Assembly: GCF_000735345.1 (NCBI RefSeq) | Contig: NZ_JMPJ01000069.1 | Location: 59,817-123,816, forward strand | Length of the DNA stretch: 64,000 nt | Origin: Ewingella americana ATCC 33852 | GTDB taxonomy: Bacteria; Pseudomonadota; Gammaproteobacteria; Enterobacterales; Enterobacteriaceae | Direction: 5' to 3' | In this document: positions 29,958 through 42,274 of the stretch, in pieces | Layout of the letters: each line of letters begins with the position of its first letter | Position numbering within the stretch: the first letter of the stretch is position 1 | Notes under the pieces: generated by a model | Database searches by the model: none | Seen by the model: the letters and a program-made list of their open reading frames with translations, nothing else | What the model was told of the DNA's origin: nothing | Position numbers and translations under genes: made by a program

Positions 29958-30798
29958 AAGCTTCCACAATAGGTTGGCGCTGCTCGCCATCGCGCACGGC
30001 GGCGTACAACCTGCTCCACAAGCCATCTCCCAGCGTTTTAGTCACTACCAGTCCCTGACGTTCAAAGCTCTCCACCACCCAGTGCGGCAGCGCAGCAATA
30101 CCCATGCGGGCCGACACCATCTGAATCAATAACAGCGTGTTATCGACGCTTTTCAGCGCCGGGCTAACCCCTGCCGGTTGCAGGAAGTGACGCCAGATAT
30201 CCAAGCGTTGGCGCTGAACCGGGTAGATCATCAAGGTCTCGGCGCTTAAATCTTCCGGCGTGATAATCGCCTGATTGGCCAGCGGGTGATCCGGCGCCAG
30301 CACCAGACGCACTTCGAAATCAAACATTGGCGAGTAGTGCAGACCACTGCGCGGCAGGATGTCCGAGGTCAGCACCAAGTCTAGCTCGCCCTGCTGTAGC
30401 GCGGGCTGCGGGTCGAAAGTGACACCAGATTTGAAATCCATCAACACATTCGGGAAGCGCAGGCGGAAGTTATCCAACGCCGGGGTCAGCCACTGAATGC
30501 AGCTATGACACTCAATCGCGATACGCAATGACGCCTGATGCGGCTCGCTGCAAGCCTGTAGCGCCTGCTGGATTTGCGGCAGCACTTGTTCAGCCAAGTT
30601 AAGCATGATCTCACCCTGCGGCGTAAAGCGGAGCGGCTGGCTTTTACGCACGAATAGGCGGAAACCCAGACGCTGCTCCAAATCGCTGAACTGATGCGAT
30701 AAGGCAGACTGTGTCTGGTGAAGCTGCGCGGCGGCAGCGGCCAGCGACCCGGTATTACGTAGAGCTTGTAGGGTCCGCAGGTGTTTCAGTTCAATCAT
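29845..30798 (-). CDS. metR: LysR-family methionine biosynthesis regulator MetR
   Basis: Activator of metE, metH and related genes with homocysteine as co-regulator. The 317 residues match E. coli MetR in length and sequence; the helix-turn-helix is in [24 protein letters not shown], and the effector domain contains [17 protein letters not shown]-like sequence. It is divergent from metE with a 103-bp shared promoter region, as in E. coli, and its end overlaps yigM. Confidence 0.96.
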
Positions 30799-30861
30799 GA
30801 GAGTCCTTCACCGTGTCATGAATTATTTGCGCTTGTGCAATATACAGTACCTGCGGATTAT

Positions 30862-30885
30862 GGATGTGTAAACATCTGGACGGCT
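30862..30885 (+). promoter_or_regulatory. Tandem MetJ met boxes upstream of metE
   Basis: Three adjacent 8-mers, GGATGTGT, AAACATCT and GGACGGCT, match the met box AGACGTCT at 5, 6 and 6 positions. They lie 17-40 bases before metE, where MetJ with S-adenosylmethionine would repress. The same gap includes a half MetR site (TGAATTATT). Confidence 0.62.
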
Positions 30886-30901
30886 AAACAGGAAGATAAA
30901 G

Positions 30902-33178
30902 ATGACCATATTGAACCATACCCTCGGTTTCCCTCGTGTCGGTCTGCGTCGTGAACTGAAAAAAGCACAAGAGAGTTACTGGGCTGGCAACAGCACTCAG
31001 CAAGAATTACTGGCCACCGGCCGCGAACTGCGCGCCCGTCACTGGAAACAACAGGCCGACGCTGGCGTGGATTTAGTCCCTGTCGGCGACTTCGCATGGT
31101 ACGACCACGTTCTTACCACCAGCCTGCTGCTCGGCAACGTCCCAGCTCGCCATCAAAACGCCGATGGCTCAGTCGACCTCGATACTCTGTTCCGTCTGGG
31201 ACGTGGCCGCGCACCCACGGGGAAACCCGCCGCCGCCGCTGAAATGACCAAATGGTTCAATACCAACTACCACTATATGGTTCCTGAATTCGTGAAGGGT
31301 CAGCAATTCAAACTGACCTGGACCCAACTACTGGATGAAGTGGACGAAGCGCTGGCGCTCGGCCACAAAGTGAAACCAGTGCTCCTCGGTCCCCTGACTT
31401 ACCTGTGGCTGGGCAAGGTAAAAGGCGAGCACTTCGACCGTCTTTCCCTGATTAACGACATTCTGCCGGTCTATCAGCAAGTGCTGGCTGAACTGGCAAA
31501 ACGCGGCATCGAGTGGGTACAAATCGACGAACCCGCGCTGGTTCTGGAACTGCCGAAAGCTTGGCTGGATGCTTACAAGCCAGCCTACGAGCAGCTTCAG
31601 GGCAAAACCAAACTGCTGCTGACCACCTATTTCGACAGCGTGGGCCACAACATTGATACCATTCGCCAACTGCCGGTGCAGGGGCTGCACATCGACGCCG
31701 TTGCCGGTCGCGATGATCTGGCTGCCGTGGCTGACCAGTTGCCAAAAGAGTGGCTGCTGTCTCTGGGGGTGATCAATGGCCGTAACGTCTGGCGCGCCGA
31801 CCTCAGCGCGTGGTTCGAGCGCCTCAAACCGCTGGTTGCTGGCCGCAACGTCTGGCTAGGCAGCTCCTGTTCGCTGCTGCACAGCCCAATCGACCTGAGC
31901 GTGGAATCGCGTCTGGATGAAGAGGTGAAAAGCTGGTTCGCCTTCGGCCTGCAAAAATGTGCCGAGCTGGCGCTGCTGACTTCTGCTCTCAATGACCCGA
32001 AACCAGAGACGCTGGATAAATTGGCCCAATACAGCGCGCCAATCCGCGCCCGCCGTGACTCTAAACGGGTAAATAACGCCGCCGTTGGCAAACGCGTTGC
32101 CGCCATCACTGCCGCAGACATTGAGCGCCCAAGCGTTTACACAAAACGCGCCGAAGCCCAGCGGGCGCGCTTCAAACTGCCTTTATGGCCAACCACCACC
32201 ATCGGCTCATTCCCGCAAACCACTGAAATTCGTGGCCTGCGTCTGGACTTCAAACAGGGCCGTTTGGACAATGCTAATTACCGCACCGGCATCAGCGAGC
32301 ACATCAAGCAGGCGATTAAAGAACAAGAGCGTCTGGGCATCGACGTTCTGGTTCACGGTGAAGCCGAACGCAACGACATGGTGGAATACTTCGGTGAGCA
32401 TCTGGACGGTTTCGTCTTCACCCAAAACGGCTGGGTGCAGAGCTACGGCTCACGCTGCGTTAAGCCGCCGGTGATTATTGGCGACGTTAGCCGCCCGGAG
32501 GCCATCACCGTCGAGTGGGCCAAGTACGCCCAGTCGCTGACCGAACGCCCAGTGAAAGGCATGCTGACCGGCCCTATCACCATTCTCTGCTGGTCCTTCC
32601 CGCGTGAAGATGTCAGCCGCGAAACCATTGCCAAGCAGATTGGTTTGGCGCTGCGCGATGAAGTGGAAGATTTGGAAAAAGCCGGTATTGGCATCATCCA
32701 GATTGACGAACCCGCGCTGCGCGAAGGACTGCCACTGCGCCAGTCAGAGTGGAATGCCTACCTGCGTTGGGCCGTCGACGCCTTCAAACTCAACGCCGCG
32801 ATTGCCAAAGATGACACGCAGATCCACACCCACATGTGTTACTGCGAGTTCAACGACATCATGGATTCCATCGCCGCGCTGGATGCCGACGTTATCACCA
32901 TCGAGACGTCGCGTTCAGATATGGAGCTGATCGAAACCTTCAAAGAGTTCGATTATCCCAACGAAATCGGGCCGGGAGTTTATGACATTCACTCGCCAAA
33001 CGTGCCAAGCGTCGAGTGGATTGAGAACCTGCTACGCAAAGCCGCCGACAGCATTCCGGCCGACCGCCTGTGGGTTAACCCGGACTGCGGCCTAAAAACC
33101 CGCGGCTGGGACGAAACCCGCGAGTCACTGGAAAACATGGTGAAAGCCGCCAAACGCCTGCGCGCCGAGCAGATCTAA
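30902..33178 (+). CDS. metE: Cobalamin-independent methionine synthase MetE
   Basis: Transfers a methyl group from 5-methyltetrahydropteroyltriglutamate to homocysteine. The 758 residues match E. coli MetE (753). N-terminal folate-binding barrel opens with [15 protein letters not shown]; the C-terminal barrel has the zinc ligands in HTHMCYCEF and [11 protein letters not shown]. Single gene, divergent from metR and followed by a strong terminator. To its right begins an accessory island. Confidence 0.97.
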
Positions 33179-33208
33179 TCTGCCACTCAAACTGTCCAGA
33201 TGAATGTT

Positions 33209-33234
33209 AAGGAGCACTTCGGTGCTCCTTTTTT
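33209..33234 (+). terminator. Intrinsic terminator of metE
   Basis: AAGGAGCAC, TTCG loop and GTGCTCCTT are followed by T's, 30 bases after the metE stop. Confidence 0.93.
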
Positions 33235-33375
33235 CCTGTGTGTTTAACCTCTCGGTTAATCGTCATATGCCGAATGACTTCTCCCTTTTCTTATTAATAC
33301 AGCGATACTCTTAAAGCGAAGGTTTTTCTTTCGCCAATACACACGCAATTAATTTTTGAATTGGAGAGTTTTACA

Positions 33376-33975
33376 ATGAATATACTTATCGTTGATCAAC
33401 TATCCATTTTCATTCAAGGTATGTCAGTGGGCCTAAAAAATATAATGCCTGATTTAAATGTTAAGGGCGTAAATGATTTAGATACCATGAAGCAAGCTCT
33501 GGATGAAAATCTAATATCGATTGTATTACTCGATGGGGAAATGGCTCGAGATAGATGTGTTTCTCTATTGGATGATATTACTCTTGACCATCCTAAGGTT
33601 CGGGTTGTGGTCATGCTCAATAAAATAAAAAAGAGTACATTGCGTTTTTACCTTAGGCATCATGCCATTGGTGTTATATCCAAAAATGCGTCGCTGGAAA
33701 CTATCGGACAGGTGTTAAGGACCGCATCCTGCGGAATGGTTTGTGTCCCTGATGAGAATTTTGAAGACATTGCCGAAGATCAATCTCTAACTAAACTCAG
33801 CCAGCGCCAAAGAGAAATATTACGACTGATTGCTGCTGGAGAATCCAATAAGCAAATCAGTCGTGTATTAAATATTAGCGCGGGCACAGTGAAATCTCAT
33901 CTCGAATCTATATATCGGCGACTTAACGTTAAAAATAGAACTCAGGCCGCTATGATGCTTTCTCTTGATGAGTAA
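33376..33975 (+). CDS. NarL/FixJ-type LuxR response regulator of the accessory island
   Basis: Regulator of 199 residues: receiver-like domain (1-125) and LuxR helix-turn-helix (about 138-195, LSQRQREILRLIAAGESNKQ, then GTVKSHLESIYRRL). The phosphoacceptor Asp53 and Lys103 are kept, but the acidic pair is D7-Q8 instead of two acids and the switch Thr/Ser after strand 4 is Asn82, so phosphorylation may be altered or absent. The ATG at 33376 has GGAGAG seven bases upstream. The gene is A/T-rich compared with metE. It is convergent with the seven-gene operon 34035-37883 and is its likely regulator; no sensor kinase is near. Confidence 0.82.
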   Translation: MNILIVDQLSIFIQGMSVGLKNIMPDLNVKGVNDLDTMKQALDENLISIVLLDGEMARDRCVSLLDDITLDHPKVRVVVMLNKIKKSTLRFYLRHHAIGVISKNASLETIGQVLRTASCGMVCVPDENFEDIAEDQSLTKLSQRQREILRLIAAGESNKQISRVLNISAGTVKSHLESIYRRLNVKNRTQAAMMLSLDE

Positions 33976-34034
33976 TAAACTATGATATTTGGCAGTTGAT
34001 ATCTACCTTTCCACCAGGGAATGTAATTTATATA

Positions 34035-34397
34035 TTAGTCTTTTAGGTTTTTCTCTTTGCGGAGTTTATTTCTTTCAGCTGATGGAAAGCGCAGACGCAG
34101 CTTTTGCTTATCACGAATTATTTGCCAGAAGTAGTGGCAGGCAACCATCGCTATCCCCACATCTTTTAAGATCCAGATTGGGAATGCGTGGGCATAGAGC
34201 TGAATACCGTGGATTAAGTAAGGTAGATTCAAGGCGCCTTGAGAGGCAAAACCAAAGGCGGCAGCAATTAACGAGATTTTATACCAAGCTGGTTGCTGTA
34301 ACATTCGCTCGTTTAGCGAGCAGAGGAAGATAATCAGCGCGGTTGCGAAATCCATAATAGTAAGTGCAAAAAATCCCCACCATTCAATCATGTGCAT
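34035..34397 (-). CDS. Small holin-like membrane protein, last gene of lysis-like operon
   Basis: Protein of 120 residues with three hydrophobic segments (about 4-27, 36-58 and 67-88) and a strongly basic C-terminal tail (RDKQKLRLRF and onward), the layout of class I phage holins. The start MHMIEWW was chosen because GGAGATGA lies eight bases upstream; three other in-frame ATGs are near. It overlaps the preceding gene by 14 bp. I recognise no named holin family, so the role is inferred from size, topology and the lysozyme in the same operon. Confidence 0.6.
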   Translation of the reverse strand: MHMIEWWGFFALTIMDFATALIIFLCSLNERMLQQPAWYKISLIAAAFGFASQGALNLPYLIHGIQLYAHAFPIWILKDVGIAMVACHYFWQIIRDKQKLRLRFPSAERNKLRKEKNLKD

Positions 34398-34845
34398 TTT
34401 CGTCATCTCCATTGGTTTTATTTACAGCGCGAGTGCGTGGTGCTTTTAGCTGACCTGAAGGCGTCCGCGTTTTTATACCCCGAGCAACACGTTTAAGTTC
34501 ACCGGCAACTTCGAGAATGTCGGAGTCTTCTCGGCGGTTGAAGAAATTGGCTAGCCAGGCAATAACACCTACGCTGACAGCGCCGACGACATATCCCAGC
34601 CCCATTGCTGTATCTGCTTCGTTGAAGTTCATTCCCAGCCAGCGGGAGACAATGCCACCGAGGGCTGATGTTGCGCCGACGCTAATACTGCCAATGATCA
34701 AACCCGCTGAGAATCGGCCATGACGGTGTAGCTTTTTTGGCTGCCAGAAGAATGAAATGCTCAATCCTCCAAACAAACCTGCAAATGCCGCCAGCACCTG
34801 ACTAATGAAAAAGTTGCCTACGGGATCAACAATCACATTTGTCAT
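34384..34845 (-). CDS. Second small membrane protein, holin-like
   Basis: Protein of 153 residues with three hydrophobic segments (about 12-34, 46-68 and 80-102), rich in Gly and Ser (FAGLFGGLSIS, GLIIGSISVGATSALGG), and a charged cytoplasmic tail (about 103-153). AAGGGGG lies five bases before the ATG. The layout suits a holin or a holin partner. The overlap with the next gene suggests that the two membrane proteins are made in fixed ratio. No named family recognised. Confidence 0.58.
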   Translation of the reverse strand: MTNVIVDPVGNFFISQVLAAFAGLFGGLSISFFWQPKKLHRHGRFSAGLIIGSISVGATSALGGIVSRWLGMNFNEADTAMGLGYVVGAVSVGVIAWLANFFNRREDSDILEVAGELKRVARGIKTRTPSGQLKAPRTRAVNKTNGDDENAHD

Positions 34846-34916
34846 GAGTCCCCCTTATTGGTGAGAAGTAGCGCCACGGCGACATGGCGCTGTAAAACAA
34901 CTTATGGGTTTTGTTC

Positions 34917-35483
34917 TCACAGACAGATCAATATTCCGGCGAAAATGTAGTCTTGTGTGCGGAACGTCAGCCTGTTATCAACTAAAGCCGTTGGAACGCC
35001 ATGCTCTCCAGTTGCGGGATCATAGGCATAAAATCCATGGGCATTTCTTCCCAAAGCTATCCAGTGAGTCCCACCTGCAACCAGCACAAGATAAAAGCCT
35101 GCTGCTTGCACCATGCCTTGCAGATAAGCCTCGCTGGCGATGACGGTGGCACTCTGTCCAATAAGCGCCCGCTGAGGCGCAACCAATGGATCAAGCTCAA
35201 CAGGTAACGCTGGCGTGGTCATGACTTGAATGCCGTCATTGAACCCATGCTGAATAGCCAGTGTGACCAGCGTCGAAGGTAATGAAAGGGGTGTGTCATT
35301 AGTGAAGGCATCAGGATAGTCAGTTAAGTCATGCTGTAATTGAATAACTGACGCGTAAATAGTATTTCCCAAAGGGGCATTCGCAGGTGTGCCTAAATTT
35401 CGGGCGTTAATTAATGCTCCCAATGAATAAGCACCGCAGGAATTGCTATTATCAGGTTGTTGCAGGTTGTAATTTTGGAACAT
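34917..35483 (-). CDS. Putative papain-fold (C39-like) cysteine protease
   Basis: Protein of 188 residues with the clan CA order Cys-His-Asp: Cys16 at the start of a helix (SNSCGAYSLGALINARN, with Gln8/Gln9 before it as possible oxyanion-hole residue), His140 (GGTHWIALGRN) and Asp155 (YAYDPATGEHG). This arrangement fits C39/C70-like papain-fold proteases. It has no signal peptide, Gly-Gly processing context or transporter nearby. GAGAGG eight bases before the ATG at 35483 supports the start. It lies between the barnase-like and holin-like genes. Substrate unknown; it could be released cargo, a processing enzyme, or a toxin. Confidence 0.62.
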   Translation of the reverse strand: MFQNYNLQQPDNSNSCGAYSLGALINARNLGTPANAPLGNTIYASVIQLQHDLTDYPDAFTNDTPLSLPSTLVTLAIQHGFNDGIQVMTTPALPVELDPLVAPQRALIGQSATVIASEAYLQGMVQAAGFYLVLVAGGTHWIALGRNAHGFYAYDPATGEHGVPTALVDNRLTFRTQDYIFAGILICL

Positions 35484-35578
35484 AATATATCCTCTCAATT
35501 GACTTATGGATTTACTAAGCATCTTTTAAGATTAATGCTTAATAGGTTGGGCTTGAAATTGTTGATGTTACTTACTGA

Positions 35579-36100
35579 TTATTGGCATTCTTGGATCTTA
35601 ACAAGTGACCGGTAGGTATTGTTGGTCAAATAGCGATAGGGATCATCAGTGCTATATATCAGCCTTTTCGAGCTTCGCAGGCCACGAACGGATTCTATAT
35701 CTGCGCTATACCAGCGGACTGACTTGGGGAGTGCAGCATTTTGTATAGGATCACCACCGATGGACTTTTTGTTCAAAGTCCAAGAGGCTTCCCACAGAGA
35801 ATCAGTATCTGCACCGCTCCAGCCGGCCTGTTTGGCTTTGGCACTGGTTACATAAGTATTAGGTAAGGCATCGTCACGATTGATTTTTTGCAACAGACTT
35901 ACCAGCGCCTTTTCATCTTTTAAGCTTTTATTACCTCCTTTTATTAATTCCTCATTTGCCTGACTAACCGCCTCTCTACAGGAAATAATGCTCTGTGCAT
36001 AAACAGAACAAATAGGCGAAATAAAAGAGACTAAAATTGTTCCAATGGATATCGGCTTAATAAAATTTGAGAATGAAATTAGAGGTTGATTTTGGTGCAT
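35579..36100 (-). CDS. Secreted barnase-fold protein lacking catalytic residues
   Basis: Protein of 173 residues with a signal peptide (cleavage near VYA|QS, about 36). Residues about 82-170 follow the barnase (ribonuclease N1/T1/U2 family) pattern: LPNTYVTSAKAKQAGW, KSIGGD, RWYSADIESVRGLRSSKRLIYS, TYRSLVKIQ. By hand alignment barnase Lys27, Glu73 and His102 are replaced by Ser, Ser and Thr, whereas Arg83 and Arg87 remain. RNA hydrolysis is therefore doubtful. No barstar gene is adjacent, which fits a non-toxic protein. Cysteines near residues 41 and 172 could form a disulfide in the periplasm. GAGGG lies eight bases before the ATG. Confidence 0.68.
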   Translation of the reverse strand: MHQNQPLISFSNFIKPISIGTILVSFISPICSVYAQSIISCREAVSQANEELIKGGNKSLKDEKALVSLLQKINRDDALPNTYVTSAKAKQAGWSGADTDSLWEASWTLNKKSIGGDPIQNAALPKSVRWYSADIESVRGLRSSKRLIYSTDDPYRYLTNNTYRSLVKIQECQ

Positions 36101-36130
36101 TGAAATACCCTCATGGATATAAATGAGTAT

Positions 36131-36580
36131 TTAGGCCTGTAAGAATAAATTCCTTTCGGCTATACGACGGCGAGTGAGGCCGGACACTTCTTTACCGCCT
36201 GCTTTATTCCAGCGGAGAAATTGATCCGCAGCTTCCTGCATTAATCCTTGGTTCAATAATTTAAGTAGGGTAGAGGTTTGTAGATTGCCAACACCCAAGT
36301 TGAAGGTAAATGACACCAATGCGTCAAACTGGTTTTGCGTCAGCATCACGTTGACCCATCGATTGACCCCGGCTTCGCTGGTCGCGAGATCTTTACGCAG
36401 TAACGCTTCCGCCTCTTTATCTGAAATGGCCGCGGGAAAGCTTTCCGATGGCAAAATCAAATGACCATAGCCAATTGTCCATTTCCCTACGACGTCCTGA
36501 TACTTCTTCAGCTCCTTGCCTTCGAAATCTTTAATCAAGGCGATACCTTTTGCGCCGGTACTTAATATGACATTACTCAT
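36131..36580 (-). CDS. T4-type (GH24) lysozyme / endolysin without signal peptide
   Basis: Protein of 149 residues of glycoside hydrolase family 24, cutting the glycan strands of peptidoglycan. The catalytic set is complete: Glu20 (KDFEGKEL), Asp29 (KYQDVVGKW) and Thr35 (WTIGYGH). There is no signal peptide or signal-anchor, so export would need a holin, and two holin-like genes lie downstream in the same operon. The start ATG overlaps the stop of the DUF2589 gene by 8 bp (ATGAGTAA), which indicates translational coupling. A longer reading from 36634 would lie inside the upstream gene and lacks homology. Confidence 0.88.
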   Translation of the reverse strand: MSNVILSTGAKGIALIKDFEGKELKKYQDVVGKWTIGYGHLILPSESFPAAISDKEAEALLRKDLATSEAGVNRWVNVMLTQNQFDALVSFTFNLGVGNLQTSTLLKLLNQGLMQEAADQFLRWNKAGGKEVSGLTRRRIAERNLFLQA

Positions 36581-37178
36581 TTTCCGACTCCTCAACGTTA
36601 GGTTTAGGCACCACACGATTGGTGTATTCTTCAATCAATCGCATGACACTTTCTGGTGGTTCCAACACGGTAAATTGCATTTCGATATCTACATGGCGGC
36701 TATCTCGGCCATCATTGTCTTTGCTGGTGGGCGATAGGCTGACGTGAAAACGGCTGACGTTATCCTGAAGACTTGGCGTCCCGGCAGACAGTTGCTCTAC
36801 GCCGTCGGTGCGCACGGTCAGATGCACTTTCATTTTTTCCAACATCAGGCCACGAGGCGTCGCGAGTGCTACCAGCGGCAGCTCAAAATGGTTCTTCTCA
36901 TCAAGATGCATAATTAAAGTGCGTGGCGTTAGGCTGCCATCATCCATATGGTCAAAGAACGGATCTAATGCCTGCATATACTGATGAGCAATCAATTGGT
37001 TAGCCGATGATGCGGCCAGTTGCATTCCGCGAGTTATATCCTCCAGTGTGACAGGAGTGGGCGGGACCCCCGTGCCTTCTGGTATAGGCTGTGGCTCAGC
37101 AGAAGAAGGCTCTGAGGCTGCTTCATTAGGTTGCTGCGGAGGGCGTTTCCCACCGCCAAACCAATTTTTTAATGACAT
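36573..37178 (-). CDS. DUF2589-type protein A
   Basis: Protein of 201 residues. A Pro/Ser-rich N-terminal tail (about 1-40, including a Gly-Gly-Gly patch) is followed by a region that I recognise as DUF2589: DITRGMQLAASSANQLIAHQY, LPLVALATPRGLMLEKMKV, SRFHVSLSP, GRDSRHVDIEMQF, and PPESVMRLIEEYTN. Family function is unknown. No signal peptide or membrane segment. AGGAG lies six bases before the ATG. An intrinsic terminator stands between this gene and the upstream relative, and the next gene (lysozyme) overlaps it by 8 bp. Confidence 0.7.
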   Translation of the reverse strand: MSLKNWFGGGKRPPQQPNEAASEPSSAEPQPIPEGTGVPPTPVTLEDITRGMQLAASSANQLIAHQYMQALDPFFDHMDDGSLTPRTLIMHLDEKNHFELPLVALATPRGLMLEKMKVHLTVRTDGVEQLSAGTPSLQDNVSRFHVSLSPTSKDNDGRDSRHVDIEMQFTVLEPPESVMRLIEEYTNRVVPKPNVEESENE

Positions 37179-37190
37179 AACTGACTCCTG

Positions 37191-37217
37191 AAAAAGGCCG
37201 TCACCTTCACGGCCTTT
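37191..37217 (-). terminator. Terminator inside the lysis-like operon
   Basis: On the minus strand AAAGGCCGT and ACGGCCTTT pair over 9 bp around a 7-base loop, and the stem is followed by further T's (five T's in all). It lies 31 bases after the stop of DUF2589 protein B and before protein A. Partial read-through would let B be made in excess over the lysozyme and the downstream genes. Confidence 0.75.
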
Positions 37218-37247
37218 GGTTTACAAAGCCTGGATTGAAGGAGTGAA

Positions 37248-37883
37248 TCAGCCCACGGTTTCAGGTTCTTTCGCCGCAGATGTTGGCGTTACTGGGAAAG
37301 TATCGAGTTTTTCTTTGTTAGCTTCGGCAGGGAGCACTGCCGGCTTGGTGGCTGCATCGGTCAGGAAATCAATCACGCGCATTAATGCTTCAGGTGGCTG
37401 CTGGCGCTTGATTTGGGTGTGAATACTGTATTTTGCGCGAGTATCTGATTTACGAGTTTGCTCAGCTTTGTGTGAAACGCGGCCTGAGACTTTCACTTTT
37501 ACTGGGCCCCAGCCGAGAGTGGCTTCAAATGAACCCTCTGCATCGTCGCTGCTGGAGCTGGCTTCGCTTTGAGTGACTTCCAACTCGAAATCAATCGTAC
37601 CTTCTTCAATACAGATGATCGGATGGGTGATGGCCGCCAGCAGAGGAATTCGCATGGTTTTTTTAACCACGCCCTGAATCACTCCGGCCTGATCGACTAC
37701 GGTTTCGTCGTAATCGAACTGCACCGATTCGGCCTTACCATCTTTAATACACACGGACAGTAAGAAGTCGGCATAGGCTTTACTGGCCTGAACCTGTGCT
37801 TTGATCATGGCTTGCAGCGGGCCGCCAATCATATTTTCTAACGGTAGAGCATTGATAACGGAACCAATAAATTGCGTATCCAT
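37248..37883 (-). CDS. DUF2589-type protein B, first gene of the operon
   Basis: Protein of 211 residues, second DUF2589 subtype: LPLENMIGGPLQAMIKAQVQ at about residues 12-31, RIPLLAAITHPIICIEEGTIDFE in the middle, a Ser-rich acidic stretch (SEASSSSDDAEGS), then LGWGPVKVKVSGRVSHK and PPEALMRVIDFL. In many genomes the two DUF2589 subtypes are neighbours, to my memory. No signal peptide. AGGAG lies eight bases before the ATG at 37883; the apparent longer reading upstream is not supported. Function unknown. The promoter must lie in the 270-bp gap shared with the divergent SDR gene. Confidence 0.68.
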   Translation of the reverse strand: MDTQFIGSVINALPLENMIGGPLQAMIKAQVQASKAYADFLLSVCIKDGKAESVQFDYDETVVDQAGVIQGVVKKTMRIPLLAAITHPIICIEEGTIDFELEVTQSEASSSSDDAEGSFEATLGWGPVKVKVSGRVSHKAEQTRKSDTRAKYSIHTQIKRQQPPEALMRVIDFLTDAATKPAVLPAEANKEKLDTFPVTPTSAAKEPETVG

Positions 37884-38153
37884 AATGCGTACTCCTGTGA
37901 GATGAAAGTGATGACGAAGTGCGAGCTCGCAGGGATAACGTAAGTCGAAAGTTACCTGTGAAAAATCGGGTACGCGGCGGATGCGAAGTAGGTGATTGGC
38001 TGATGAATGAATCTGATAGATGGCAGAGGTGAGGGGTTGGAATCTTATTTCGACGGGCAAGAATGCTCCCAAAATCCGCCGATCTCCCTCGCGTTGTGTG
38101 ATTCCCCACTAGGCTTAGTACAGACATTACTGAGACTAACCAAGGAGAGAACA

Positions 38154-38918
38154 ATGAGCAGATTCACAGACAAAGTTGTCGTTGTGACCGGGGCGGGTTC
38201 AGGGATGGGGGCCGCCACGGCAAGGCGTTTTGCCAGTGAGGGCGCGATTGTGGTGCTGGTCGGGCGCACCAAAGAGAAGCTGGAAAAAGTGGCCCAGTCG
38301 CTGAGCAGCACGCAGTACTACATTCATATTGCAGACGTGTCGAAAGCGCAAGACGTCGAGCGCATGGCGGCGGTCATCACCGACAAATTTGGCCGGGTTG
38401 ACGTGTTGGTCAACGGCGCGGGCGTGGTGGCGCAGGGCAAGGTCACCGAGGCGAGCCTTGAAGATTGGCATAAAGTGATTGAAATCGACCTGAGCGGCGT
38501 CTTTTATTGCACTCGATTCTTCATGCCAGCGCTGATCAAAAGCAAAGGCAACATTGTGAACATTTCGTCGGTATCCGGCATGGGCGGCGATTGGGGCATG
38601 AGCTTCTATAATGCAGCAAAGGGCGGGGTGAGCAACTTCACGCGCTCAATTGCGATGGACCACGGCAAAGACGGCGTGCGAGTCAACGCGGTTTGCCCGT
38701 CACTGACCTTTACTAAAATGGCTGAGGATATTAAAGACAACCAGCCGCTGTTGGATAAGTTTGCAGAACGCATTCCGATGGGGCGCGGTGCCGAACCTGA
38801 AGAGATTGCTGACGTGATTGCCTTTCTGGCCAGCCACGATGCGCGCTTTGTTACCGGGGTTAACCTGCCGGTCGATGGTGGCCTGATGGCCTCCAACGGC
38901 CAGCCGCAGCAGGCTTAA
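38154..38918 (+). CDS. Short-chain dehydrogenase/reductase
   Basis: Classical SDR oxidoreductase of 254 residues. Cofactor motif TGAGSGMG at 12-19, the structural NGAG variant of NNAG, and the catalytic Ser-Tyr-Lys set with Tyr152 and Lys156 (SFYNAAKGG). Arg after the second beta strand (VLVGRTKEK) suggests NADP(H). The C-terminal VTGVNLPVDGGLMAS is typical. AAGGAG five bases before the ATG. It is divergent from the lysis-like operon and convergent with ysgA. Substrate unknown; it is part of the material inserted between metE and ysgA. Confidence 0.88.
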   Translation: MSRFTDKVVVVTGAGSGMGAATARRFASEGAIVVLVGRTKEKLEKVAQSLSSTQYYIHIADVSKAQDVERMAAVITDKFGRVDVLVNGAGVVAQGKVTEASLEDWHKVIEIDLSGVFYCTRFFMPALIKSKGNIVNISSVSGMGGDWGMSFYNAAKGGVSNFTRSIAMDHGKDGVRVNAVCPSLTFTKMAEDIKDNQPLLDKFAERIPMGRGAEPEEIADVIAFLASHDARFVTGVNLPVDGGLMASNGQPQQA

Positions 38919-38943
38919 TCGGGTTACTTAATCAGGTTAATAG

Positions 38944-38962
38944 GGCTGCCCGGCGGGCAGCC
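38944..38962. terminator. Hairpin between SDR gene and ysgA
   Basis: GGCTGCCC/GGGCAGCC, 8-bp stem with GGC loop, in the 55-bp space between two convergent genes. A T-run (TTTTTA) begins only 10 bases later, so strength is uncertain. Confidence 0.5.
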
Positions 38963-38973
38963 TTCACTCGTTT

Positions 38974-39813
38974 TTACTTAATTCCGTATTGCTCAAACCA
39001 CTGCAACATACGCTGCCAGCCATCGGCGGCGGCTTCTGGGTTGTAGCTTGGGCGATAGTCGGCGTGGAAAGCGTGACCTGCTTCCGGGTAAACCACGATT
39101 TCAGCCGTGGCGTTTGCCGCGCGCAGTGCCTGACGCATGGTTTCTACGCTTTCGAGTGGAATACCTGCATCCGCGCCGCCGTACAAGCCCAGCACCGGCG
39201 CACTCAAATCTACTGCTTTATCAACTGGATGGCTCGGACTGGTCAGGGTTTTATCGCCCACCAGCTTGCCATACCACGCCACGCCAGCTTTTAGCTGCGG
39301 GTTGTGCGCGGCATACAGCCAAGTGATGCGGCCGCCCCAGCAGAAGCCCGTAATAGCCAGTTTTGACTTGTCGCCGCCGTGCTGAGTGGCCCAGTGCGCG
39401 GTGTGGTCGAGGTCAGCTAGCACCTGTTTGTCCGGCACTTTGCCAACCACTTTGCTGATAATATCGCTGACTTCGGTGTAGTCACGCGGGTCGCCCTGAC
39501 GGAAATAGAGCTCGGGCGCGATCGCCATATAGCCCTGTTTCGCCAGTCGGCGGCAAATATCTTGAATATGCTCGTGGACGCCAAAGATCTCTTGTACCAC
39601 CAACACGATAGGTAATTTTCCGGTGTAGTTTTCCGGGCGCGCCAGATAGGCAGGCATGTCCTCGCCTTGCGATGGAATAGTGGTTTGCCCGGCGTGCAGA
39701 CCTTCAGTATCTGTGTGTAGCGTGGTGCTTGCCACGGGAGTTACGGCAGGTGCGAAGCTTGTTGGAGCCTGTTTTACTTGTGGAGTGGGTACAGGTAAAT
39801 CGTCGTTCTTCAT
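38974..39813 (-). CDS. ysgA: Dienelactone hydrolase-family protein YsgA
   Basis: Alpha/beta hydrolase of 279 residues, orthologous to E. coli YsgA (VVQEIFGVHEHIQDICRRLA, ITGFCWGGRITWLYAAHNPQL). The Cys-Asp-His triad is visible as Cys in GFCWGG, Asp in GGADAGIP and His in AGHAFHADY. The ATG at 39813 has GGAG six bases upstream, better than the ATG four codons earlier. In E. coli ysgA lies directly between metE and udp; here about 5.8 kb separates it from metE and a catalase gene separates it from udp. Natural substrate unknown. Confidence 0.9.
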   Translation of the reverse strand: MKNDDLPVPTPQVKQAPTSFAPAVTPVASTTLHTDTEGLHAGQTTIPSQGEDMPAYLARPENYTGKLPIVLVVQEIFGVHEHIQDICRRLAKQGYMAIAPELYFRQGDPRDYTEVSDIISKVVGKVPDKQVLADLDHTAHWATQHGGDKSKLAITGFCWGGRITWLYAAHNPQLKAGVAWYGKLVGDKTLTSPSHPVDKAVDLSAPVLGLYGGADAGIPLESVETMRQALRAANATAEIVVYPEAGHAFHADYRPSYNPEAAADGWQRMLQWFEQYGIK

Positions 39814-39861
39814 CTCGGTCTCCATGCATTTCTTATCTAATGAGTGGCGCTATTGTTTTTA

Positions 39862-39912
39862 AACTATAGCTGCAAACCTACGACGGCAAGGTACTAGACA
39901 TATCCTATAGTT
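39862..39912. promoter_or_regulatory. Divergent -10-like elements between ysgA and katE
   Basis: AACTATAG (39862-39869) and CTATAGTT (39905-39912) are exact inverted copies, so each strand carries CTATAGTT pointing towards ysgA or katE. CCTATAGTTAG resembles the sigma-S extended -10 CTATACTTAA. E. coli katE depends on RpoS. Confidence 0.42.
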
Positions 39913-39997
39913 AGAGATTGAGCAAAAAAAAGTCTCAAGACAGGTGCTCAATACCTTCAGAACGAATGAAGCCGAATAATTAAAGGAGTCATGTTCA

Positions 39998-42274
39998 ATG
40001 TCGAAATCTACACCTAATAAAAAGAGTGAGAAGAAACAGGTCAGCCGCGCCCCCGCCACGGGCATCGAATCTTCACAACCCGGTCTAGGAAACCTTGCCC
40101 CCGCTGACGGCTCACAAAAGCCCAGCGCTAAACCTACGCCGCCAGGAAAAGAACCCACTGCTCCAGGCAGTGCCAAAAGCCCTGAGAATTCCAACGCCAA
40201 AGTTGACGCGCTCGAAGTCCACCGTAAGAACGGTGAAAAACGCGCCCTGACCACCAATCAGGGGACCAAAATCTCTGACGATCAGAACTCATTGACGGCG
40301 GGTTCGCGCGGGCCGACGCTGCTCGAAGACTTTATTCTGCGCGAGAAAATTACCCATTTTGACCATGAACGCATCCCTGAGCGTATCGTTCACGCGCGCG
40401 GCGCGGCGGCTCACGGCTATTTCCAGCCCTATCGCAGCCTTGCCGATATCACCAAGGCGGATTTCCTCTCCGACCCAAATAAGAAAACCCCGGTATTTGT
40501 CCGTTTCTCCACGGTACAAGGCTCGCGCGGCTCGGCGGACTCCGTGCGTGATATTCGTGGCTGGGCCACCAAGTTTTATACCGACGAAGGCGTCTATGAT
40601 TTGGTCGGCAACAACACGCCTGTGTTCTTCATTCAGGACGCGCATAAATTTCCTGATTTCGTCCACGCGGTAAAACCCGAGCCGCACAATGAGATCCCAC
40701 AAGGCGCCAGCGCCCACGACAGCTTCTGGGACTACGTCTCTCTGCAACCTGAAACCCTGCATAACGTGTTCTGGGCGATGTCAGATCGCGGCATTCCGCG
40801 CAGCTATCGCACCATGGAAGGCTTCGGCATTCACACCTTCCGCTTCGTCAATGGCGAAGGGAAGTCGACCTTCGTGCGTTTCCACTGGAAGCCGCTGGCC
40901 GGAAAAGCCTCGCTGCTGTGGGATGAAGCGCAGAAGCTGGCGGGCAAAGACGCTGATTTCCACCGTCGGGATTTATGGGAAGCGATTGAAGCCGGAGATT
41001 ATCCAGAGTACGAGCTGGGCGTGCAGCTGATCCCGGAAGAGGATGAATTCAAATTTGATTTTGACTTGCTCGACGCCACCAAGCTGATCCCTGAGAAGCT
41101 GGTGCCGGTCGAAATCGTCGGCAAAATGGTGCTGAACCGTAACCCGGACAACTACTTTGCAGAAACCGAGCAGGTGGCGTTCCATCCGGGCCACGTGGTG
41201 CCGGGCATCGATTTCAGCAATGACCCACTGCTGCAAGGGCGTCTGTTCTCTTATACCGACACCCAAATCAGCCGACTGGGCGGGCCGAATTTCCACGAAA
41301 TCCCGATTAACCGCCCAACCTGCCCGTATCACAACTTCCAGCGCGACGGCATGCATCGGCAGGACATCGATACCAATCCGGCCAACTACGAGCCGAATTC
41401 ACTCAATGACAACTGGCCGCGCGAAACGCCACCGGCGGCAAAAGGCGGCGGATTTGAGAGCTACCATGAGCGAGTCGATGGTGACAAAGTGCGCCAGCGC
41501 AGCGACTCTTTTGGCGAGTTTTACTCACAGCCGCGCCTGTTCTGGCTTAGCCAGACGCCAACCGAGCAGGACCACATTGTCGCGGCGTTCTCCTTTGAGC
41601 TGTCCAAAGTGGCTCGGCCTTACATCCGTGAACGCGTGGTCGATTTACTGACTCACATTGATGTCACGCTGGCGCAGAAAGTGGCGAAAAATCTGGGTAT
41701 CGCGCTGTCTGACGATGCGCTGAACACCAAGCCGCCGAAGCCAGTTAATGGCTTAGATAAAGATGAATCTCTCAGCCTGTATGCCAGCGGCAAAGGGGTG
41801 ATTAAGGGGCGTCAGGTGGCAATTCTGCTCAGCGATGGCGTGAATGCCGCCGACGTGCTCAATGCGTTGCAGGCGCTTCAGGCGGAAGGTGTTCACCCGA
41901 AACTGTTAGCCAGCCACTTAGGTAATGTGGTGGCGGACGACGGCTCAACCCTGCCGATTGACGCCACCTTCGCCGGTTCGCCGTCGATCACCGTTGACGC
42001 CGTGCTGGTGCCACATGGGCATATTGATGCGCTGCTGATGAGTGGCGATGCGCGACATTATGTCCTCGAGGCTTACAAGCACCTGAAAGTCATAGGCTTA
42101 AGTGGTGATGCTCGTCGCTTCAAACCTTTACTGGGTCTGGAAGATAAGGCGGCGGAGGAGGGGCTGATCGAAGCCGATAAAGCAGAAGGGGCGTTACTGA
42201 AAAGCTTCCTGCAAGAGATGGCGAAGCACCGGATTTGGTCGCGCAGCGCCAAGGCGGAAAGTGTGCCAGCCTGA
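39998..42274 (+). CDS. katE: Large-subunit catalase, KatE (HPII) type
   Basis: Monofunctional heme catalase that splits hydrogen peroxide. The 758 residues match E. coli KatE (753) from the polar N-terminal extension to the C-terminal flavodoxin-like domain (about 600-750). Essential residues are visible: His in [12 protein letters not shown], Asn in [10 protein letters not shown], and the heme-ligand Tyr in [19 protein letters not shown] lies nine bases before the ATG. The gene is inserted between ysgA and udp relative to E. coli, where katE is far away. Stationary-phase (RpoS) control is likely by family knowledge. Confidence 0.95.

What the first reader, a model, noticed from the sequence alone, without database searches (positions are those of the whole stretch)
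33376..37883. Lysis-like seven-gene operon with a convergent LuxR regulator between metE and ysgA
Seven minus-strand genes lie close together or overlap: DUF2589-B, DUF2589-A, GH24 lysozyme, barnase-fold protein, papain-like protease and two holin-like proteins. A NarL-type regulator is convergent with them. Seen: order, overlaps, motifs and an A/T-rich composition for several genes. Known: signal-less GH24 endolysins need holins, and type 10 secretion uses holin-endolysin cassettes to release cargo. Inferred: this is a domesticated lysis or release device whose cargo may be the protease, the barnase-fold protein or the DUF2589 proteins. No structural phage genes, integrase or spanin are present. 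I know of no described system with this gene set.
Basis: partly seen in the sequence, partly recalled or inferred. Interest (0 to 1): 0.88.

Follow-up and report, generated by a model that had tools for sequence, protein, structure and literature searches.

The report
Recurrent lysozyme release operon with DUF2589
A compact set of bacterial genes, built around two uncharacterised proteins and a cell-wall-cutting enzyme, recurs in unrelated bacteria outside recognisable prophages and looks like a borrowed device for opening some cells from within to release proteins, though nobody has tested what it does.

Summary
Seven minus-strand genes plus a convergent LuxR-type regulator form a discrete island (about 33235-38054) that a congeneric genome lacks at a near-precise empty site. 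A random prophage remnant is unlikely. Named genomes gave 73 DUF2589-B loci: 69 keep DUF2589-A, 51 GH24, 53 a similar regulator; a barnase-like gene accompanies GH24 in 33 of 51. Order is conserved across Enterobacterales and Burkholderiales at different sites.

New: cellular DUF2589 pairs sit beside peptidoglycan hydrolases of five Pfam families, in 16 of 29 groups. Cargo slots vary: C39-like, CdiA-type RNase A, NRPS genes. DUF2589-B is as conserved as MetE.

Best reading: a phage-derived, regulated self-lysis or release device, T10SS-like but failing the spanin criterion. DUF2589's role is open. Confidence 0.5.

The parts
33235..38054 (.). island present in the window, absent in a congeneric genome (near-precise empty site between metE and the SDR gene)
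   Evidence: blastn of the window to L260: 32801-33234 and 38055-38600 are adjacent there, 2 bp apart
33376..33975 (+). LuxR/NarL-type regulator, convergent with the operon; receiver-like N-terminus
   Evidence: Pfam GerE 2.9e-23, Response_reg 1.6e-7; a similar regulator in 53 of 73 named loci
34035..34412 (-). hol1: small membrane protein, one strong hydrophobic segment; holin-like by position only
   Evidence: no Pfam hit, one PHROG hit at 0.51 only; hydropathy; 13 of 73 named loci
34384..34845 (-). hol2: small protein with three hydrophobic segments; holin-like by position and topology
   Evidence: hydropathy; PHROG 1024 of unknown function, best 0.0029, 7 of 8 members at E <= 1; 24 of 73 named loci
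34917..35483 (-). C39/papain-like protein without a signal; variable cargo slot
   Evidence: Gln9, Cys16, His140 invariant in 6 of 6 aligned; no Pfam or credible PDB match; 5 of 73 named loci
35579..36100 (-). barnase-fold protein with a signal-like N-terminus, without the barnase catalytic Glu and His; Cys near both ends of the mature part
   Evidence: PDB match 7.9e-9; Glu73 and His102 positions 0 of 22 rows; N-terminal hydrophobic segment 17-35; Burkholderiales homologues after gh24
36131..36580 (-). GH24 lysozyme, no signal or SAR-like N-terminus
   Evidence: Phage_lysozyme 9.1e-46; endolysin PHROG 7 6.9e-58; E-x8-D/C-x5-T motif in 54 of 55 ORFs
36573..37178 (-). DUF2589-A
   Evidence: PF11655 9.4e-12
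37248..37883 (-). DUF2589-B, the most conserved product of the operon
   Evidence: PF11655 2.5e-26; 94.8% identity and dN/dS 0.023 within the genus
37920..37931 (-). dyad TGCGAGCTCGCA, 36 nt upstream of the dufB start; possible operator or 5' hairpin
   Evidence: 14 of 66 upstream regions have a hairpin at about -52 to -23 with p < 0.05, all Burkholderiales; the window copy is not significant alone (p 0.60); covariation in 12 Burkholderia/Paraburkholderia rows

Best explanation
A phage-derived, chromosomally fixed, regulated release operon. The orphan LuxR-type regulator switches the operon on, probably in a minority of cells. DUF2589-B and -A, the first genes, accumulate in the cytosol; the membrane proteins hol2 and hol1 then let the signal-less GH24 lysozyme reach the wall; the cell opens and releases the cytosolic contents (DUF2589 pair, C39-like protein) together with the periplasmic ones (pseudo-barnase and, in relatives, an RNase A-like protein). 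Shown: gene set, order, recurrence, conservation, intact lysozyme motif, lack of a lysozyme export signal, variable cargo slots, recurrent pairing of DUF2589 with hydrolases of different families. Inferred: holin function, lysis, regulation, and which product is cargo. My bet for DUF2589 is that the pair is the main passenger or assembly that the hydrolases serve (about 0.3 on that sub-step), rather than a control partner of the lysin (about 0.2).
For: Order dufB-dufA-gh24-barn with a regulator is conserved in Enterobacterales and Burkholderiales at different sites. GH24 is an endolysin by PHROG and keeps its motif without a signal. Cellular DUF2589 pairs have a hydrolase within 5 kb in 16 of 29 groups (36 of 57 at a looser collapse), from five Pfam families; hydrolase matches number 76 in 698 kb within 3 kb of DUF2589 and 3 in 754 kb elsewhere in the same loci (related loci not collapsed, and the queries were themselves taken from DUF2589 neighbours). 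Cargo positions vary: C39-like; an RNase A toxin domain above Pfam's cut-off in 3 of 4 proteins tested at one position; an unknown 178-aa protein in L114; NRPS-type genes in Pectobacterium/Brenneria. Membrane proteins with 3 and 1 hydrophobic segments follow. Discrete island.
Against: No holin family matches hol1 or hol2. tblastn of hol2, hol1 and the barnase-like protein against 50,697 phage records found nothing at E <= 1. No spanin. GH24 loci in Burkholderiales, Ochrobactrum and Cedecea lack hol1/hol2 homologues. 13 of 29 cellular groups and 16 of 16 viral groups show no hydrolase with my queries. A lone gh24 persists at the site in one congener (L262), so gh24 may act outside the device. 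No induction, lysis or release data.
Confidence: 0.5

Rival explanations
1. Antibacterial weapon: lysozyme, C39-like protein and RNase A-like proteins are effectors or bacteriocins, and the membrane proteins only release them.
For: RNase A domain of the CdiA toxin type in relatives; one distant locus has a Pesticin-type lysozyme; the barnase-like gene evolves fastest, 52% identity within the genus.
Against: No immunity gene was noticed (not searched for); the barnase-fold protein lacks the active site; the window has no RNase A-type gene among the ORFs listed; GH24 is a single 149-aa domain, so no uptake domain is visible.
Confidence: 0.15
2. Sub-lytic wall remodelling or vesicle formation: local lysozyme release makes vesicles rather than killing the producer.
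For: No spanin; a defective prophage lysis module in E. coli K-12 is reported to modulate OMV production (PMC7918800, title and start of abstract in the listing); a 2026 paper argues for non-lytic secretion by Salmonella T10SSs (PMC13284979, listing only).
Against: A GH24 lysozyme with an intact motif in 54 of 55 ORFs and variable cargo genes suggest more than housekeeping.
Confidence: 0.13
3. Anti-phage suicide: infection triggers the regulator and the host lyses early.
For: Patchy island distribution; DUF2589 proteins also occur in phages, so a phage signal is conceivable.
Against: PADLOC matches only the DNA-binding domain of the regulator (CARF3 and others) and, weakly, hol2 (TniQ_V, 7.8e-4); nothing for the other six proteins. 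No sensor gene was noticed.
Confidence: 0.08
4. Remnant of a prophage kept by chance.
For: GH24 resembles phage endolysins (2,851 records, best 58% identity); one Kosakonia locus has a phage-type integrase and tRNA-Leu beside it.
Against: Same gene order in many genera, low dN/dS, no structural genes in the flanks inspected.
Confidence: 0.04

Closest known systems
Type 10 secretion systems (Serratia ChiWXYZ, Yersinia YenLC)
   Same: signal-less peptidoglycan hydrolase, small membrane proteins, a regulator nearby, outside a prophage, plausible cargo
   Different: no spanins; GH24 lysozyme, where the described ones are a crosslink-cleaving endolysin; two membrane proteins without holin family matches; no DUF2589 pair or pseudo-barnase in the T10SS passages I saw
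Phage lysis cassette (holin, GH24 endolysin, spanins)
   Same: GH24 of endolysin type
   Different: no spanins found, not in a recognisable prophage, extra conserved genes
Pfam DUF2589 (PF11655)
   Same: both proteins are members above the cut-off
   Different: no known function; no PDB match to the profile searched; one incidental paper by that name
Barnase/binase RNases
   Same: sequence match over the fold
   Different: catalytic Glu and His replaced in all 22 rows; N-terminal extension and two Cys

Membership tests
Type 10 secretion system | signal-less peptidoglycan hydrolase | tested here: met
   GH24 9.1e-46, no hydrophobic N-terminus
Type 10 secretion system | holin | tested here: inconclusive
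   hydrophobic segments in hol1/hol2 but no holin family match
Type 10 secretion system | i- and o-spanin (described as holin/endolysin/spanin clusters outside phages, PMC10847048, passages) | tested here: not met
   no lipobox or i-spanin-like ORF in 33181-38155 by a simple scan
Type 10 secretion system | located outside a prophage | tested here: met
   no structural genes among ORFs 30500-41500 or in the relatives' flanks inspected
Type 10 secretion system | cargo leaves the cell only with the cassette, in a subpopulation | not testable with these tools
   needs expression data
Barnase-type RNase | catalytic Glu73 and His102 (numbering recalled) | tested here: not met
   0 of 22 rows at either position
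GH24 lysozyme (PF00959) | profile match and E-x8-D/C-x5-T motif (motif recalled) | tested here: met
DUF2589 (PF11655) | profile match over the cut-off | tested here: met
   93.3 and 46.0 bits, cut-off 23
Prophage remnant | phage structural or integration genes in the neighbourhood | tested here: not met
   none among ORFs 30500-41500 (by eye); one Kosakonia locus does carry an integrase
PADLOC defence systems | match to a defence family | tested here: not met
   only the regulator's DNA-binding domain and a weak TniQ_V hit for hol2

The most novel reading that the evidence does not exclude
The DUF2589-A/B pair is a two-subunit, phage-derived cytosolic assembly of a kind not yet described, which bacteria have captured and repeatedly coupled to whichever peptidoglycan hydrolase was at hand (GH24, GH19, Amidase_3, N-acetylmuramidase, Pesticin-type) to release it. 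The window operon is one branch that added a secreted pseudo-barnase, membrane proteins and exchangeable cargo.
Probability: 0.25. Interest if true: 0.9.

Novelty: new variant of a known kind. Interest (0 to 1): 0.72.

Why it matters
It would extend lysis-based protein release beyond the spanin-bearing T10SS to a spanin-less, recurrent operon in Enterobacterales and Burkholderiales, and give a first functional handle on DUF2589, an uncharacterised family that nearly always comes in pairs and is shared with uncultured phages. The variable cargo slots give a way to find new secreted effectors, and a small operon makes the idea testable in laboratory E. coli.

Tried and rejected
Profile searches of the PDB with DUF2589, C39-like and hol2 alignments found nothing credible. 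A regulator box seen by eye upstream of the regulator genes (13 rows taken from 18 upstream regions) was turned into a weight matrix; upstream of dufB it reached p < 0.05 in 8 of 21 loci and not in the window (p 0.32), so it is not used as evidence. A GCGA/TCGC dyad upstream of the window's regulator was not found at that place in the 17 relatives shown. Holin-like small ORFs near viral DUF2589 pairs: 28 of 119 small ORFs near against 24 of 151 far, too weak to use. Rfam found nothing in 33100-38200. Promoter-like sites are at the chance level (8 against 7.5 expected) and terminator-like ones nearly so (7 against 4.9). The dyad test used 12 of the 22 Burkholderiales rows listed (Ralstonia and Trinickia rows and one duplicate left out) and a structure that I named after seeing the rows; two of its five measures are unremarkable (pairs changed on both sides, 83 of 500 shuffles as high; further pair types, 430 of 500). 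The Enterobacterales rows were aligned but not counted. A prophage remnant and a known defence system were considered and rejected. My notebook says 23 barnase rows; the correct count of family rows is 22.
Full report
OBSERVATION. Pfam supports both DUF2589 proteins, the GH24 lysozyme and a GerE/Response_reg regulator; the other four have no family above a cut-off. The barnase-like protein matches barnase and binase chains (best 7.9e-9). The genes are poorer in GC (0.39-0.51) than the window (0.54). The right neighbour is an SDR gene, with ysgA after it.

A DISCRETE ISLAND. DUF2589 occurs in 2 of 6 held genomes of the genus, the window's own included. The other carrier, G004, has a contig of the same length as a record titled Ewingella americana E4, so the window is from a congener. 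In G001 the sequences flanking 33235-38054 are adjacent (2 bp apart), a near-precise empty site; G002 lacks the island too (133 bp between the flanks); G003 has only a gh24 gene at the site. Against G004 all eight genes are open. dN/dS could be computed for five: 0.023 (dufB), 0.040 (dufA), 0.061 (hol2), 0.075 (regulator), 0.118 (hol1); dS is above 1, so the values are rough; for gh24, C39-like and the barnase-like gene dS could not be computed. DUF2589-B is 94.8% identical, like MetE at 93.0%; the barnase-like protein is 52.0%.

RECURRENCE. In sampled genomes DUF2589 is patchy: 18 of 392 in the family, 9 of 398 in the phylum, 3 of 369 in the class; the samples overlap. Every positive genome of the family sample has two copies (18 of 18), and 8 of 9 in the phylum sample. 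A scan of named genomes gave 73 loci. With window proteins as queries: dufA 69 (the 4 without it are cut by contig ends), regulator 53, gh24 51, hol2 24, barn 15, hol1 13, C39-like 5 of 73. With a profile, barnase-like genes also appear after gh24 in 18 Burkholderiales loci, so 33 of 51 gh24 loci have one and none of the 73 has it without gh24. Orders: dufB-dufA-gh24-barn-C39-hol2-hol1 with convergent regulator in 4 (Ewingella, two Rahnella, Leminorella); the same without C39 in 8 (Kosakonia, Enterobacter and a relative); regulator divergent, then dufB-dufA-gh24-barn in 17 Burkholderiales; dufA-gh24-hol2 with dufB downstream in 10 Pectobacterium/Brenneria (9 with the regulator). In 9 of these 10 the two DUF genes are about 5 kb apart, in L103 1.9 kb; the large genes between and after them were seen in 4 loci (L056, L057, L058, L088) and tested as NRPS-type (A-PCP-C; A; PCP) in L088. 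Seventeen loci have the DUF pair without the other operon families; L109 among them has a Pesticin-type hydrolase and L098 a GH19 (tested on the same record as L153). Several loci are cut by contig ends. Flanks differ between genera: metE/SDR, adh/dhaK, ribH/nusB, uvrA/alr, speE/speD (names recognised by eye from translations). Of 9 loci scanned and the window, 4 have a tRNA nearby: tRNA-Leu in L047, L049, L052 and tRNA-Met in L056.

LYSOZYME. It matches phage endolysins (PHROG 7, 6.9e-58; 2,851 of 50,697 phage records, best 58% identity). The catalytic motif is present in 54 of 55 ORFs, the exception being one in L075, and no row has a signal or SAR-like segment by hydropathy. By established knowledge of endolysins it needs help to cross the inner membrane.

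MEMBRANE PROTEINS. hol2 has three hydrophobic segments and hol1 one by a simple scale. Neither matches a holin family: hol2 gives PHROG 1024 (unknown function) at 0.0029, and 7 of 8 members do at E <= 1; its NCBIfam and Pfam hits lie far below the cut-offs. Neither is found by tblastn in 50,697 phage records. 'Holin' is therefore inferred from position and topology. No spanin was found. In Yersinia entomophaga, uncoupled constructs lacking Rz or lacking Rz1 still lysed cells, although the native cassette lacking Rz1 did not (PMC10101115, passages), so absence of spanins does not settle the matter.

THE BARNASE-LIKE PROTEIN LACKS THE RNASE ACTIVE SITE. In 22 of 22 Enterobacterales rows the position of barnase Glu73 is Ser or Thr and that of His102 is another residue (numbering recalled). 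In the 14 Burkholderiales rows aligned, none has Glu there. The window copy keeps a hydrophobic signal-like N-terminus, and the 22 rows keep a Cys near each end. A secreted pseudo-enzyme that is never seen without gh24 suggests a lysozyme partner or safety factor, or a binding protein; this is inference.

CARGO SLOTS. The slot between barn and hol2 holds the C39-like gene, another 178-aa protein of no Pfam family (L114) or nothing. The C39-like family keeps Gln9, Cys16 and His140 in 6 of 6, a papain-like signature (recalled), without a family match. Between hol1 and the regulator, Kosakonia, Leminorella and a third genus carry proteins with a signal-like start (by eye); 3 of the 4 tested match the CdiA-CT RNase A domain above Pfam's cut-off, the fourth (L046) does not.

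DUF2589 BEYOND THIS OPERON. Distant cellular pairs often have an ~88-aa third gene and sit beside other hydrolases: GH19 in three loci, Amidase_3, N-acetylmuramidase and Pesticin-type, itself a lysozyme homologue by Pfam's description. Collapsing at 80% identity of DUF2589, 16 of 29 cellular groups have such a hydrolase within 5 kb and 13 do not; at 95%, 36 of 57. In 88 loci of at least 12 kb, hydrolase matches number 76 in 698 kb within 3 kb of DUF2589 and 3 in 754 kb outside, all three in Leminorella-type loci. Two cautions: related loci are not collapsed there, and the hydrolase queries were taken from DUF2589 neighbours, which favours the inside count. Regulators next to distant pairs are also LuxR-type (L061, L151) or Mor-type (L127, L060).

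PHAGE SIDE. Phage records hardly have DUF2589 (1 of 50,697, the same record with two queries), but 118 relatives were confirmed in viral contigs, of which 80 were returned, and a second scan added others. The first three (L159-L161) carry the Kosakonia-type operon and are probably chromosome (L160 shown). The 88 others fetched collapse to 16 groups at 80% (35 at 95%). Some are clearly phage, with portal, head, scaffolding, terminase and head-tail genes nearby (104 of 141 neighbours scanned). In L164 a PHROG holin adjoins the pair. No hydrolase was found near viral pairs (0 of 16 groups) with queries taken from bacteria, so this is a weak negative, and it is also the main fact against DUF2589 being a lysin partner in phages.

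REGULATION. Of 66 dufB upstream regions, 14 have a hairpin at about -52 to -23 that beats mononucleotide shuffles at p < 0.05, all of them Burkholderiales; the Enterobacterales ones, the window included (p 0.60), do not on their own. In 12 Burkholderia/Paraburkholderia rows all 84 cells pair, two pairs change on both sides, and no shuffle of 500 reaches the covariation score, though two of the five measures are unremarkable. It could be an operator or a 5' hairpin. Binding by the regulator is not shown.

COMPARISON. The T10SS is described as holin/endolysin/spanin clusters outside phages, and lytic release from subpopulations is reported for Yersinia and Serratia (PMC10847048, passages); a later paper argues for non-lytic secretion in Salmonella (PMC13284979, listing only). 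The window operon works plausibly like one but fails the spanin criterion and is inconclusive on the holin, so I do not file it as a T10SS. I found no paper describing DUF2589 function: one incidental paper (listing only), none for 'PF11655' or 'DUF2589 domain-containing'; barnase with holin, lysozyme and secretion gave one unrelated paper. Only the open-licence PMC library was searched.

VERDICT. A real, recurrent and, as far as these searches go, undescribed operon; lysis or release is the best reading at 0.5; the role of DUF2589 is the open and most interesting question.

Noticed in passing
L262:4877-5389: A congener (G003) keeps a lone gh24 gene at the same metE-SDR site where the rest of the island is missing.
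   Followed up: partly
L088:2915-10908; also L056, L057, L058: In Pectobacterium/Brenneria the DUF pair is split by and merged with large genes, NRPS-type where tested (L088), as if the release module had joined a natural-product cluster; nine of ten such loci have the 5-kb gap.
   Followed up: partly
L014:8287-10289, L250:1168-3067, L251:6706-9049: A three-gene DUF2589 variant with a middle ~240-270 aa protein.
   Followed up: no
L044:10020-10286, L149:7107-7373, L166:6618-6908 and others: A conserved ~88-aa protein without a Pfam match (L044 copy tested) travels with distant DUF2589 pairs in bacteria and a viral contig.
   Followed up: partly
L127:7355-7918, L060:7431-7850: Mor-type (phage Mu-like) regulators next to DUF2589 pairs in Pseudomonas and Vibrio.
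   Followed up: partly
L047:4681-6251: In Kosakonia oryziphila a phage-type integrase and tRNA-Leu lie beside the operon; hol2 is short there (69 aa) and hol1 was not found.
   Followed up: partly
window 33264-33278 and upstream of the regulator gene in relatives: A CTATGCCAAATG-like motif seen by eye in 13 rows from 18 upstream regions, possibly an autoregulatory site.
   Followed up: partly
L159-L161: IMG/VR contigs whose DUF2589-B is 81-82% like the window's; L160, the one displayed, carries the whole Kosakonia-type operon, so probably chromosome filed as virus.
   Followed up: no
L069:7284-7865, L160:1120-1710: A second GH24 gene just upstream of dufB in some Kosakonia-type operons.
   Followed up: no
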